Assembly: GCA_015075625.1 (NCBI GenBank)
Contig: JABTTZ010000002.1
Span: 930,001 to 994,000 of the forward strand
Direction of reading: 5' to 3'
Source of the DNA: Anaerolineales bacterium
GTDB lineage: Bacteria > Chloroflexota > Anaerolineae > Aggregatilineales > UBA2796
Length of the DNA stretch: 64,000 nucleotides
Under the pieces are notes generated by a model. It saw only the letters and a program-made list of their open reading frames with translations, was not told the origin of the DNA and made no database searches. A program made the position numbers and the translations under genes. Shown piece by piece: positions 1 through 57,522 of this stretch. Each line of letters starts with the position of its first letter. Within the stretch, counting starts at the first letter, position 1.

Positions 1-30
1 GAGATCGTCCAGCAGTTGCGTGGATTTCAT
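1..30 (-). CDS. 5' end of an unidentified gene cut by the window edge
   Basis: Reading the reverse strand, a GGGAGGG ribosome binding site lies about 7 nt before an ATG at position 30. It opens a frame beginning MKSTQLLDDL that is still open at the window edge. Only ten codons are visible, so no product can be named. It is transcribed away from the neighbouring Crp/Fnr gene in the same direction, with about 195 nt of AT-rich leader between them. The strong Shine-Dalgarno is the main support. Confidence 0.4.
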   Translation of the reverse strand, partial: MKSTQLLDDL

Positions 31-225
31 TTGATAGCCCTCCCGTTAGCGCTTAATGTGGGATGGTTTAGCTGCGAGGCATGTTTGTGTAATCCATGAA
101 ACTTAAAGCTCCCATCCATTTATGTCTTTAGCATAAAGTAACGGGAACGATGTGTATTTAAGCTGGCTTAAAAGGGAATATGCTGGGTGTCATTGATCAC
201 AGGAAAAACGTGACAAATAACACGA

Positions 226-894
226 TTAGAGCATGGCAATAGAGCGAAGGATGAGTTCGTTTACAATGACAATTCGGTGACGATCAAACTGGATTGCCCC
301 TGCCTCTTCTAGAGAATGCAGCATATTGCTGATCGTCTGGGGAGTGGTATTGATATGTGCCGCAATAGCAGTACGAGTGATACCAGGACCACTGAGCGAA
401 GGGTCTTCAGCCTGTTTCAGTAAAAAACGGGCGAGCCGAACAATGACCGAATACAACGCCAGATCTTCGATTTGCCCGACTAGAGACCGCACACGTCCTG
501 CCAGCAAGCTGATTACATTGAATGCAATCTGCGGATTTTGGATCAGGACATATTTTATGACTCCCGACGGCACCAACCATACAAAGGCTTTTGAACTCAA
601 GGCAGCAGCATTGGCGGGATTATCGCCTCCATCCAGCGCACTGATGTCGTTGAATGTCTTACCCGGTCCGCACAGATGCAGTATATGTTCTTCACCCATC
701 TGATTGAGCTTGAAAATTTTGATAGTTCCTTTTTCAACAATCCATAACCCTTCGGCGGGTTCGCCTTCTAGAAAGATCATTTCCCCGCCAGAAAAAGTCC
801 GCAACGCAGTCCTTTCCGCAATATACGTGAGTTCACTTTCAGCTATACCTTCAAAGTAGCTAATGGATTTAATGTGATTTTGAACTGTCGCCAT
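226..894 (-). CDS. Crp/Fnr family transcriptional regulator
   Basis: A 222-residue regulator of usual Crp/Fnr size. The first ~120 residues form a cyclic-nucleotide-binding-type jelly roll (IFLEGEPAEGLWIVEKG, then a PGKTFNDISALDGG segment). The C-terminal ~70 residues are a Crp-type helix-turn-helix (TRTAIAAHINTTPQTISNML). No N-terminal cysteine cluster for an FNR iron-sulfur centre is seen, so it resembles Dnr/Nnr or other cNMP-fold sensors more than classical FNR. The ligand is unknown. The start at 894 is chosen because AGAGGT lies about 12 nt upstream and the length fits the family. An ATG at 939 is possible; the longer in-frame extension to 1131 has no family support. It could be the factor that binds the FNR-type box before nirK at 56.3 kb, but that is inference. 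The surrounding DNA is more AT-rich than most of the window. Confidence 0.88.
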   Translation of the reverse strand: MATVQNHIKSISYFEGIAESELTYIAERTALRTFSGGEMIFLEGEPAEGLWIVEKGTIKIFKLNQMGEEHILHLCGPGKTFNDISALDGGDNPANAAALSSKAFVWLVPSGVIKYVLIQNPQIAFNVISLLAGRVRSLVGQIEDLALYSVIVRLARFLLKQAEDPSLSGPGITRTAIAAHINTTPQTISNMLHSLEEAGAIQFDRHRIVIVNELILRSIAML

Positions 895-1563
895 CGCAAG
901 GATACACACCTCTTGTGGTTCAAGAATTGGATTCTTCATATTTCTAGCAACCGAACACTGAACAAATGGACGAAGGAAAAGGGATTGAAGGCGGAGGAAA
1001 CTAGGATTAAGGTTAAATGACCAAACAAAACCGAACCGGAGTAGCCAATGTGAACAATCGCCATTCCCCACTTGTATAGTATCCTGCTTGAGCGAGTGCT
1101 GCCATTGGTAGGTCAGTGGTGTGGCAGCCATATGACGAATCTGATCGTGCTGATGATGGGTTTGTACCGAGGGCGAAGTGTGTATTGTCCCACAATAATG
1201 AACGACTCAGGCTGAGTGGTCACGATCTTCCTCATGATGTAGCCCTTTGTCCTCTTTCGTACTGCGCTCATGGGGAAATACCCAACACCCCCCGCGCTGT
1301 CAGTTTCTATAGCGTGGTCATGGCGTTCAGGTCTTTATCACCCTTCATGCTTACATTTTATGCCACCTGCTCAAGACAGAATGGGCAAGGGACGCCGCGC
1401 CGGAACTTTTGGCAGCAAGCGATGATCGAACCGGGACCGTATGCGGTGGGGGCGCTTTGCGCGTGGATCAGTGTCCCGCTGGCGTTCCTCGTCTACCTGA
1501 TCCGGACCTTGTTTTACATTGTGCCGCCAGCGGGAAAGACGGCGGAAGGGGAAGTGCCTACAG
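895..1563. other. Gene-poor stretch, possible truncated membrane ORF
   Basis: No confident gene. Bases 895-1400 are AT-rich with no coding signature. From about 1422 a short reading frame on the plus strand has high GC3 and encodes one hydrophobic helix (YAVGALCAWISVPLAFLVYL). It then runs straight into the 155-bp repeat at 1564. It may be the stump of a membrane-protein gene whose end was replaced by the repeat; this is weakly supported. Confidence 0.25.
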
Positions 1564-55215: not shown

Positions 55216-56232
55216 CTAATGGGATGCGCCCCCAACGGCTGGCGGGTTGCCCACTTTGATCACGCCCAATGCTCCTAGCCCGGTGTAGGCGAAACTGTGG
55301 GTCACAAAGGGGTACAATCCTTCGTCGGGGATGCGCATTTCCACCGTGTAGCCACCGCCCGGGGGAATGGTCACAGTCTGCATCCCCACCTGTTTGTTTG
55401 CCGGATTGCCATCGGCGTAAGCCGCCTCAAACAGCGTCCCGATCACATGGAAGGCGCTCCAGTGGGAGGGACCACAGTTGCAGACATGGATGCGAATCAA
55501 CTCGCCCGGATCGGCAGCCAGCGGGGCATCCACATACTGGTTGGCATAACCGTTGAACACGACGTAATCCGGCGTGGCGGCGCTCATCTTGCCGAAATCG
55601 CCGCGCTGGACGCCCTGTTCGTCGGCTTCACCGAGGTAATATTCGTGCTGCACAAGGACATATTCGCGGGCGGGTTCTGCCCACCCATTTTTTGGCTGGA
55701 CGATGATCGCCCCGTGCATCCCATTCCCTAAATGCATCAAGACGGGCGGCGTCCCGCAGTGGTACATATAGACGCCCGGATAGGGCGGCGTCCAGGTAAA
55801 GGATGCTTGCTCGCCCGCTGGCACGGATTGATAGTATTTGTCCCAGGGGAGCAGCGCGGCATGAAAATCGATGCTGTGCGCCATGGCGCCGGAGTCGTTG
55901 ATCAAGGTGAAGGCGACTTCCTCACCCTCTTTGACATGCAAGTGCGGTCCGGGGCTGCTGCTTTCATACGTCCACAGTTCGGTCAGCACACCGGGGGCGA
56001 TCTCTTTAATGACATGGGGGGTATGGAGGGTGATGCTGCTATTCACTGCCGGTAGATCGGCGCTCATCGTGTTCAGCGGGTGGTCCCCCTGGGCGCGGAC
56101 GAGTGTCTTGGGGGTGGTAAGTGACGTCAGAGGGGAGCGAATCAGTTGGGACGCGCCGGTCACCGCCGCTGCACCCACCAACGCCGCGCCTTTCAAAAAA
56201 CGGCGGCGGCTTGGATTCGTGAGGTTCGTCAT
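55216..56232 (-). CDS. nirK: Copper-containing nitrite reductase (NirK-type, NO-forming)
   Basis: 338 residues with a twin-arginine signal (SRRRFLKGAALVGAAAV) and two cupredoxin domains. Type 1 copper ligands are His119, Cys159 (MYHCG), His167 and Met172 (LMHLGNGMHG). Type 2 ligands are His124 (AHSIDFHAA), His158 and His312 (FVTHSF). The catalytic Asp122 and His262 (SAFHVIG) are present, so it should reduce nitrite to NO outside the membrane. Length is near the classical two-domain enzymes. Related multicopper proteins exist, but the complete T1/T2/Asp/His set favours NirK. AAAGGA precedes the ATG and a perfect FNR-type site lies 76 nt upstream. Not in an operon with other denitrification genes. 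Confidence 0.88.
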   Translation of the reverse strand: MTNLTNPSRRRFLKGAALVGAAAVTGASQLIRSPLTSLTTPKTLVRAQGDHPLNTMSADLPAVNSSITLHTPHVIKEIAPGVLTELWTYESSSPGPHLHVKEGEEVAFTLINDSGAMAHSIDFHAALLPWDKYYQSVPAGEQASFTWTPPYPGVYMYHCGTPPVLMHLGNGMHGAIIVQPKNGWAEPAREYVLVQHEYYLGEADEQGVQRGDFGKMSAATPDYVVFNGYANQYVDAPLAADPGELIRIHVCNCGPSHWSAFHVIGTLFEAAYADGNPANKQVGMQTVTIPPGGGYTVEMRIPDEGLYPFVTHSFAYTGLGALGVIKVGNPPAVGGASH

Positions 56233-56243
56233 GGCTTAAATCC

Positions 56244-56273
56244 TTTTGTGTCTCTACACGTTTTGTGTCTCTA
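56244..56273. repeat. Tandem 13-bp direct repeats in the nirK leader
   Basis: TTTTGTGTCTCTA occurs at 56244-56256 and 56261-56273, spaced by 17 bp, directly upstream of and touching the nirK ribosome binding site. On the coding strand it reads TAGAGACACAAAA twice. Could be a binding site for a second regulator or a leader element; no family recognised. Confidence 0.45.
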
Positions 56274-56307
56274 GACATTTAGGATACCAGAAACCCTCCG
56301 CCATGTC

Positions 56308-56323
56308 TTTGATATGGATCAAA
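56308..56323. promoter_or_regulatory. FNR/DNR-type operator upstream of nirK
   Basis: TTTGATATGGATCAAA matches the FNR/CRP-type consensus TTGAT-N4-ATCAA with perfect half-sites, 76 bp before the nirK start. This is a typical position for activation by an Fnr/Dnr/Nnr protein, for example the regulator at 226-894. The site overlaps neither neighbouring gene (the YbdK gene ends at 56362). Confidence 0.75.
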
Positions 56324-56361: not shown

Positions 56362-57522
56362 TCACTCGGCAGGGTCGGGGATAGTCTCCGTCACCAAACG
56401 ATCCACGACGAGTTTGAGCGCTTCTTCATTTGTGCAGCCATCGTCCAACGCCTGATAGTACGTGGCAAGCTGGCGATCTGCGCTGGTGCCGTTTTGCAAA
56501 ATTGTCCGCACATACGCCACCTCGCTGCGCGTGCCGAGGTCATCGACGACATCATCGACAAGTTCGAGGATTTCCTCCCACAACTGCGGCACAGGAACAG
56601 CTTCTTCCTTGCCAAAATCGACCAACTCCCCCTCTATGCCATAGCGCGACGCCCGCCACTTGTTCTCTTTGATAAACTCGGTGCGGTAAAGCCGCCACGA
56701 TTGGTTTCCCCCCCGTAGTTTGAGCAGCTTCGCCGTGATCGCTTGGACGACGGCGGCGATGCAGATCGATTCCTCCACCGTTGTGCAAACATCGGCGGCG
56801 CGAATTTCCAGCGTCCCAAAACGTGGCGAGGGGCGGACATCCCACCAAATGCGGGAGGGGTCTTTCAAGCCCCCCTTCGAGAGTGAGCCGACCTTCGCAA
56901 AGACATCGACCATGTGATCGTATTCATGATAACTGGTAAAAATGGGCGGAATACCGGTGCGGGGGAGATTTTCAAAGATCACGCAGCGGTAGCTTTTCAG
57001 CCCGGTGTTGCGCCCATGCCAAAAGGGAGAACTGGTGGAAAGGGCGAGGATGTGGGGCAAGAAATAGCGCAGTTGATTCATAATATCGATGGTTAGCTCG
57101 CGGGAGGCATCGTCTGTGCCAAAGCCCAGATGGATGTGCATCCCAAAGATGAGCAAACGCCGCCCCACATATTGAAGGTCGTTCATCAGGTCTTGGTAGC
57201 GCTCGGCTTGGGTGATGTTCTGCCCGTGTACTTCGGAAAAGGGGTGCGTGGCGGCGGCGGCGATGCGCTTCCCATACTGGCTGGCAATCTCGTTCACCGT
57301 CCGCCGCAGCCGGATAAGTTCCCCCTGTGCCTCGGCAACATCACGGCAGACCCGTGTCCCAATCTCAATTTGAGATTGCATGAACTCTGCCTTCAGTTGG
57401 TCACCAATGAGTTCCCGCCCCTTCTCCAACATCTCCGTGACAGACGAGGAGAGTGCCCGCGTTTGGGCGTCTACGATCATGTATTCTTCTTCAATGCCAA
57501 TTGTTAAGGGGGGCTGTACCAT
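56362..57522 (-). CDS. Carboxylate-amine ligase, YbdK / glutamate-cysteine ligase 2 family
   Basis: 386 residues of the GCS2 family. LTIGIEEEYMIVD at the N-terminus, AEFMQSQIEIGTRVCRD, FGMHIHLGFG and PRFGTLEIRAADVCTTVEE mark the ATP-grasp-like glutamine-synthetase fold. YbdK proteins have weak glutamate-cysteine ligase activity; the natural substrate is uncertain. GAGGAGG precedes the ATG. Same strand as nirK, ending 130 nt before it; not clearly one operon. Confidence 0.88.
   Translation of the reverse strand: MVQPPLTIGIEEEYMIVDAQTRALSSSVTEMLEKGRELIGDQLKAEFMQSQIEIGTRVCRDVAEAQGELIRLRRTVNEIASQYGKRIAAAATHPFSEVHGQNITQAERYQDLMNDLQYVGRRLLIFGMHIHLGFGTDDASRELTIDIMNQLRYFLPHILALSTSSPFWHGRNTGLKSYRCVIFENLPRTGIPPIFTSYHEYDHMVDVFAKVGSLSKGGLKDPSRIWWDVRPSPRFGTLEIRAADVCTTVEESICIAAVVQAITAKLLKLRGGNQSWRLYRTEFIKENKWRASRYGIEGELVDFGKEEAVPVPQLWEEILELVDDVVDDLGTRSEVAYVRTILQNGTSADRQLATYYQALDDGCTNEEALKLVVDRLVTETIPDPAE

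What the first reader, a model, noticed from the sequence alone, without database searches (positions are those of the whole stretch)
56232..56323. nirK behind a perfect FNR-type box with a Crp/Fnr gene in the same window
TTTGATATGGATCAAA lies 76 bp before nirK. The only Crp/Fnr protein in the window (226-894) lacks an iron-sulfur cysteine cluster and is therefore a candidate NO/redox Dnr/Nnr-type regulator. A Chloroflexota NirK under such control would fit denitrification in low-oxygen habitats.
Basis: partly seen in the sequence, partly recalled or inferred. Interest (0 to 1): 0.5.

Follow-up and report, generated by a model that had tools for sequence, protein, structure and literature searches.

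The report
Two nitrite reductases, separate regulatory boxes
A bacterium of the Chloroflexota carries two copper nitrite reductase genes, each behind its own Crp/Fnr-type DNA switch; the switch noticed here is real and conserved, but it most likely answers to a different regulator than the one encoded in the same window, whose own switch is spelled differently.

Summary
The box TTTGATATGGATCAAA (56308-56323) is real and lies 75 nt before nirK (55216-56232, minus). In all four nirK orthologues of its family a TTGATN4ATCAA box stands exactly 21 nt before a TAnnnT -10 element (class II geometry). The regulator assignment is not supported. The window's Crp/Fnr protein has Q..S-N where TTGA readers have E..S-R. 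Its orthologues are absent from the three nearest genomes that keep nirK and box, and lie upstream of a second nirK type in 39 of 48 loci. Its own predicted box, TTTAAGCCAGCTTAAA, is in the window at 157-172, before a cupin-nirK2 operon. The better candidate reader of the nirK box is an E..S-R Crp/Fnr protein encoded 239 kb away; its orthologue is nirK's neighbour in three of four genomes. Across 69 orthologues of the window protein, helix residues track one base of the box: E/R with TTGA, Q/N or Q/V with TTAA, Q/T or Q/S with TTCA (42 of 42 loci with a strict TTNA box; 27 without). This rests on about two base switches on the tree. Covariation of this general kind in Crp/Fnr proteins was published in 2005. 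No binding, expression or signal was measured.

The parts
55216..56232 (-). nirK1, 338-aa Tat-type two-domain copper nitrite reductase
56308..56323 (-). FNR/DNR-type box, TTTGATCCATATCAAA read on the minus strand
   Evidence: conserved in 4 of 4 same-family orthologues
56281..56286 (-). predicted -10 element TATCCT, 21 nt after the box; predicted start about 56274
   Evidence: start position inferred
226..1131 (-). Crp/Fnr protein with helix PQTISN; regulator predicted for nirK2, not nirK1 (translation may start at 894)
157..172 (-). predicted box of the window Crp/Fnr protein, TTTAAGCCAGCTTAAA, before the cupin-nirK2 operon
130..135 (-). predicted -10 element TATGCT of the cupin-nirK2 operon, 21 nt after the box
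1..30 (-). start of the cupin gene; nirK2 (510 aa) follows outside the window at G000:C2:927915-929447
56362..57522 (-). upstream neighbour, YbdK-type carboxylate-amine ligase (context only)

Best explanation
nirK1 is transcribed from a class II activator promoter. A Crp/Fnr dimer sits on TTTGATN4ATCAAA centred about 41.5 bp before the start and helps RNA polymerase at a -10 element 21 nt beyond the box. The dimer is most likely the E..S-R protein encoded 239 kb away (G000:C2:1225579-1226340), which lacks a cysteine cluster and acts like DNR; nitrite-derived NO is the likeliest signal. The window's Crp/Fnr protein runs a separate channel: its Q..S-N helix reads TTTAAGN4CTTAAA and drives the adjacent cupin-nirK2 operon. 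nosZ has a third, TGTGAC-type box next to two R-E-x-x-x-R Crp genes. Seen in sequence: boxes, spacing, linkage, helix residues, covariation. Inferred: binding, activation, signal.
For: nirK1 box plus TAnnnT at 21 nt in 4 of 4 same-family orthologues with three different upstream genes. E..S-R regulator gene adjacent to nirK1 in 3 of 4; it is the only one of five Crp/Fnr proteins of the genome with non-R at 180 plus E181 and R185 (rule for 180/181 from PMC1274295 passages). 6 zero-mismatch hits of box-N21-TAnnnT in four genomes: three nirK1, nrfHA, DUF1858, radical SAM/B12. In family f4 box (TGTGAC) and neighbour regulator (REVVYR) are exchanged together. Window protein linked to the other nirK type in 39 of 48 loci and to nirK1 in 0 of 8. 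TTNA sites agree with helix residues in 42 of 42 loci and 8 of 8 relaxed downstream sites.
Against: In this genome the E..S-R gene is not next to nirK1. Its best PDB matches are Crp/Fnr proteins 4byy/4cyd (84 bits); DNR (3dkw) gives only 46 bits, so DNR orthology is not shown. G078 has nirK1 without an exact box (weak TGTGACAAATTTCACT before TATACT); the G024 box is followed by CATCCT, not TAnnnT. The regulator occurs in 10 of 11 family genomes, also where no nirK1 was found, so it has other targets. Helix-box agreement reflects about two base changes on the tree and only one independent pair per test. 4 of 8 one-mismatch hits have no clear target.
Confidence: 0.78

Rival explanations
1. One reading: the window Crp/Fnr protein binds the nirK1 box and controls nirK1.
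For: Same window (55 kb apart), Crp/Fnr family, no Fe-S cysteines; linked to a nirK elsewhere.
Against: Helix Q..S-N, not E..S-R; orthologue absent from G141, G142, G143, which keep nirK1 and box; 0 of 8 nirK1 loci linked; orthologues with the same helix go with TTAA sites, and the TTAA site in this genome lies before nirK2.
Confidence: 0.06
2. The box is read by another protein, for example one of the R-E-x-x-x-R Crp proteins or a regulator outside the Crp/Fnr family.
For: L015, L016 and L017 are present; L336 of the cNMP-binding hits was not read.
Against: R180-type helices go with TGTGA sites (PMC1274295), and nosZ and the L015 gene have such sites here; no R180-type gene was seen beside a TTGAT-box nirK1.
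Confidence: 0.13
3. The box is a chance palindrome without function.
For: 13 exact 14-mers in the genome, 10 in ORFs: the motif alone is not rare.
Against: 4 of 4 family orthologues keep it at the same distance from a -10 element; per genome 41-65 of 3000 shuffled upstream regions hold any such palindrome; the pattern recurs before nrfHA, DUF1858 and DUF2249 genes.
Confidence: 0.03

Closest known systems
DNR regulon of Pseudomonas and beta-proteobacteria (Rodionov et al. 2005, PMC1274295; passages read)
   Same: CTTGATN4ATCAAG-type box before nirK and other denitrification genes, read by a Crp/Fnr protein without the FNR cysteine motif
   Different: Chloroflexota; the regulator is not shown to be a DNR orthologue (DNR is a weak PDB match); nosZ is on another box; a second nirK is on a third box
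Helix-box covariation in the CRP/FNR family (same paper)
   Same: Recognition-helix residues covary with bases of the half-site; HcpR2 (Pro181) has GTAAC, also with A in place of G
   Different: There R180-G3 and E181-A6 were correlated; here 181 and 185 change together within one orthologue family and the G of TTGA becomes C or A
Solved copper nitrite reductases 3wia/3wi9 (nirK1) and 6tfd, 2dv6 (nirK2)
   Same: nirK1 and nirK2 of this genome match them over most of their length; the N-terminal cupredoxin fusion of nirK2 is a known architecture
   Different: nirK1 is below NCBIfam's NirK cut-off

Membership tests
FNR/DNR-type class II promoter | TTGATN4ATCAA palindrome | tested here: met
FNR/DNR-type class II promoter | -10 element at fixed distance that puts the box at about -41.5 | tested here: met
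   21 nt to TAnnnT in 4 of 4; the -41.5 rule is recalled and no transcript start was mapped
FNR/DNR-type class II promoter | conserved before orthologous genes | tested here: met
   4 of 4 same-family nirK1; 3 of 4 other orthologues have TGTGAC boxes and 1 none exact
DNR regulator (the E..S-R protein, C2:1225579) | no FNR-type cysteine cluster | tested here: met
   no Cys among the invariant columns of four orthologues
DNR regulator (the E..S-R protein, C2:1225579) | orthology to Pseudomonas DNR | tested here: inconclusive
   3dkw 46 bits against 84 bits for 4byy; no tree with reference proteins was built
DNR regulator (the E..S-R protein, C2:1225579) | NO/haem-dependent activation of denitrification genes | not testable with these tools
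   needs biochemistry
Window protein as a reader of TTGA boxes | E181 and R185 in the recognition helix | tested here: not met
   Q and N
Iron-sulfur FNR (window protein) | cysteine cluster | tested here: not met
   1 Cys after residue 79
NirK (nirK1) | type 1 and type 2 copper ligands and active-site Asp and His | tested here: met
   H119, D122, H124, H158, C159, H167, M172, H262, H312 invariant in 7 of 7; roles recalled
NirK (nirK1) | NCBIfam TIGR02376 curated cut-off | tested here: not met
   164.6 vs 296.3 bits; ligands and PDB matches (207 bits) outweigh this

The most novel reading that the evidence does not exclude
Within one family of Crp/Fnr regulators tied to a nirK type of Chloroflexota, the operator has been re-spelled twice in evolution: E181/R185 with TTGA, Q/T or Q/S with TTCA, Q/N or Q/V with TTAA. 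This gives a base-by-residue code for the G of the FNR half-site and lets one cell keep two nitrite reductases and nosZ on mutually insulated Crp/Fnr channels.
Probability: 0.62. Interest if true: 0.62.

Novelty: new variant of a known kind. Interest (0 to 1): 0.5.

Why it matters
It corrects which regulator most likely controls which nitrite reductase in a group of Chloroflexota known here from metagenome assemblies. It also offers a small natural series of operator changes (G, C, A at one base) paired with residue changes, which can be tested directly in vitro. If it holds, Crp/Fnr targets in metagenomes could be predicted from a few helix residues, and natural pairs could serve as insulated promoters.

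Tried and rejected

Distant nirK orthologues: 79 of the 80 fetched loci were scanned (L087, cut at the contig edge, left out). Of the six closest, three have TTGAT boxes, two TGTGAC boxes and one (L067) none exact. Of the 73 others, L081 has TGTGATTTTTATCATA before TACTAT; the remaining core matches lack a -10 element at the right distance. A recurring [GC]CTGATCG..ATCAAC 111-159 nt upstream in Rhodanobacter and similar records was rejected as a box: 21 of 21 checked copies lie in open frames of 600 aa or more, mostly reading L-I-V/A-I-N.

Controls: the reversed-pattern control holds TAG and is a poor control; I used shuffles and base composition. Hits with 2 mismatches were not counted (58 hits in all against 12 for the reversed pattern, many of them repeats in G142).

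I first took nirK2 for the chimera of PMC8756737 and wrote so in the notebook; that paper concerns NirS (abstract, section list and found passages seen), so this was dropped; nirK2 matches 6tfd and 2dv6.

Independent-pairs tests: one pair each, so no phylogenetic significance can be claimed. L343-L350 (37-39% identical relatives) gave no helix with my expression and were left out. Rows dropped: 18 weak rows (31-39% identity); three fragment orthologues (G063:C673, G039:C201, G086:C375) not fetched; L314, a repeat of L255. The 48 'nirK2-type' loci are all other NirK hits (29-37% identity to nirK1); only the one of this genome was checked for the cupredoxin fusion.

Literature: searches for FNR or FixK2 contact residues gave nothing usable; the roles of E209/S212/R213 in FNR are recalled. 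Novelty rests, in an open-access library only.

Full report
What is there. The box TTTGATATGGATCAAA lies at 56308-56323, 75 nt before the ATG (56232) of a minus-strand nirK. nirK1 is a two-domain copper nitrite reductase with a Tat signal: the best solved relatives are 3wia/3wi9 (207 bits), and the copper-ligand and active-site residues are invariant among seven orthologues (roles recalled). It scores 164.6 bits against a curated cut-off of 296.3 in NCBIfam. The Crp/Fnr gene at 226-1131 minus has cNMP_binding and HTH_Crp_2 domains.

Is the box more than chance? The exact 14-mer occurs 13 times in the genome: 10 in ORFs, 2 as a tandem pair at the 5' end of an FAD-oxidoreductase gene, 1 before nirK1. 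Alone that is weak. Conservation is strong. nirK1 orthologues at 67% identity or more occur in 8 of 154 genomes of the order, this one included. In the four of the same family (G000, G141, G142, G143) a TTGATN4ATCAA box precedes nirK1 and is followed after exactly 21 nt by TATCCT, TATGCT, TATGCT and TAAGCT respectively, with three different genes upstream. This is the geometry of a class II activator site centred at -41.5 (recalled). In the three orthologues of family f4 (G024, G026, G028) the box is TGTGACTTGGGTCACA at the same distance from CATCCT, TATTCT and TATCCT. G078 has no exact box; a weak TGTGACAAATTTCACT stands before TATACT. The full pattern TTTGATN4ATCAAA-N21-TAnnnT has 6 zero-mismatch hits in the four family genomes: three nirK1, nrfHA, a DUF1858 gene and a radical SAM/B12 gene. 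Of 8 one-mismatch hits, one is nirK1 of G141, two lead DUF2249 genes (G143, G142), one lies before a DUF1858 gene divergent from the regulator (G142), and four have no clear target. Base composition of the window predicts about 0.01 zero-mismatch hits.

Which regulator? The genome has five Crp/Fnr proteins with HTH_Crp_2 over the cut-off. Six other cNMP-binding hits did not score over the cut-off in the HTH search; I read five of them, not L336. The helices at CRP positions 180-185 are: window protein PQTISN; C2:1225579 LESVSR; L015 REVVYR; L016 REVLGR; L017 REVVTR. CRP contacts DNA with R180, E181 and R185 (PMC1274295 passages; PMC10127613 passage), and Ser or Pro instead of Arg at 180 goes with FNR-like TTGA sites. 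Only C2:1225579 thus has the make-up expected of a TTGAT reader. Its orthologue is the gene next to nirK1 in G142 and G143 (upstream, same strand) and in G141 (convergent), with the helix GTTLE[ST][VI]SRTL kept. It is found in 10 of 11 family genomes, so it is a family-wide regulator with other targets too. In f4 genomes G024 and G028 the neighbours of nirK1 are two Crp genes, the nearer of L015 type, and the box is TGTGAC: regulator and box differ together. In G026 the contig ends before this can be seen.

The window protein belongs elsewhere. Its gene is followed by a cupin gene and, about 0.8 kb downstream and outside the window, by a second nirK of 510 aa with an N-terminal cupredoxin domain, close to 6tfd and 2dv6 (506 and 494 bits). 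Among the 48 other NirK hits of the order (29-37% identical to nirK1, here called nirK2-type), 39 have an orthologue of the window protein within 5 kb upstream on the same strand; of 8 nirK1 loci none has (18 weak rows left out). By genome, 40 of 42 genomes with nirK2-type genes and 14 of 112 without carry it (not corrected for relatedness). G141, G142 and G143, which have nirK1 and the box, lack it at E <= 1e-30.

A spelling change in the box. I scanned 320 nt after the stop of each orthologue for any 16-mer with arms at least 5/6 palindromic, a 4-nt spacer, and TAnnnT 20-22 nt further on, without naming a sequence. Of 69 loci (60 of 63 order-level orthologues plus 9 from the class), 43 have such a site: 42 are of TTNA type and 1 (L295) is not; 26 have none. 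Shuffled regions give any such site in 3.5 loci and TTNA sites in 0.02 loci on average. All 42 agree with one rule: E..S-R with TTGA (19 of 19), Q..S-N or Q..S-V with TTAA (13 of 13), Q..S-T or Q..S-S with TTCA (10 of 10); 0 of 100,000 label permutations did as well. With relaxed criteria 8 of the remaining 27 loci show a downstream site, all of the expected kind, and 19 show none (two of these had under 60 nt to scan). The nine class-level loci were examined after the rule was noted: four had strict sites and one a relaxed site, all as predicted; four had none. In the window genome the rule predicts TTAA: TTTAAGCCAGCTTAAA is at window 157-172 with TATGCT at 130-135, the only zero-mismatch hit of box-N21-TAnnnT in the genome. 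nosZ has TGTGACTTGAGTCACA with CATGAT at 21 nt, and the L015 gene beside it CGTGATTTAAGTCACA with TACCCT.

Limits. On a quick tree of the 69 proteins, built without the helix columns, the base changes only twice and the residue at 185 six times. The agreement is thus close to two events, and permutations overstate it. 181 and 185 change together, so their shares cannot be told apart. No binding, expression or signal was measured; NO as signal is inferred from the genes controlled. The E..S-R protein matches DNR (3dkw) at only 46 bits against 84 for 4byy, so 'DNR-like' describes the box and the gene set, not proven ancestry.

Known and new. DNR with CTTGATN4ATCAAG before denitrification genes, and covariation of helix and box in Crp/Fnr proteins at positions 180 and 181, were published in 2005 (PMC1274295, passages read); HcpR2 sites there (GTAAC) also have A where TTGAC has G, with Pro at 181. 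I did not see the Q/T-TTCA or Q/N,V-TTAA pairings, nor this Chloroflexota arrangement, in the listings or in the passages read. The box before nirK1 is a new member of a known kind; the re-spelled sites of the nirK2-linked regulators are a new variant of a known kind.

Noticed in passing
L022:6645-10312 (G000:C1, outside the window): nosZ is preceded by two tandem Crp/Fnr genes (REVVYR and REVVTR helices) and TGTGAC-type boxes, one before nosZ and one before the nearer Crp gene, both with the 21-nt spacing.
   Followed up: partly
G000:C2:401338 and 401408 (L006, L007): Tandem TTGATGTTCATCAA sites 70 bp apart at the 5' end of an FAD-oxidoreductase gene with a Cys-rich tail; they look like ArsR-type operators rather than FNR boxes (my reading).
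   Followed up: no
L055:11254-13898 (G000:C2, outside the window): Downstream of nirK2 lie two short COX1-like membrane proteins, a second cupin and a 368-aa membrane protein without a Pfam hit; similar genes stand behind TTGAT-box promoters in G142 and G143.
   Followed up: partly
L067 / G078 upstream of nirK1: No exact FNR or CRP box, but an inverted TTGTCACA-N6-TGTGACAA just upstream.
   Followed up: no
L278, L280, L296, L297, L307: Some E..S-R orthologues of the window protein have two TTGA palindromes about 19 nt apart before the downstream gene; by the strict scan it is the second that has the -10 element at the right distance in L278, L280, L296 and L297.
   Followed up: no
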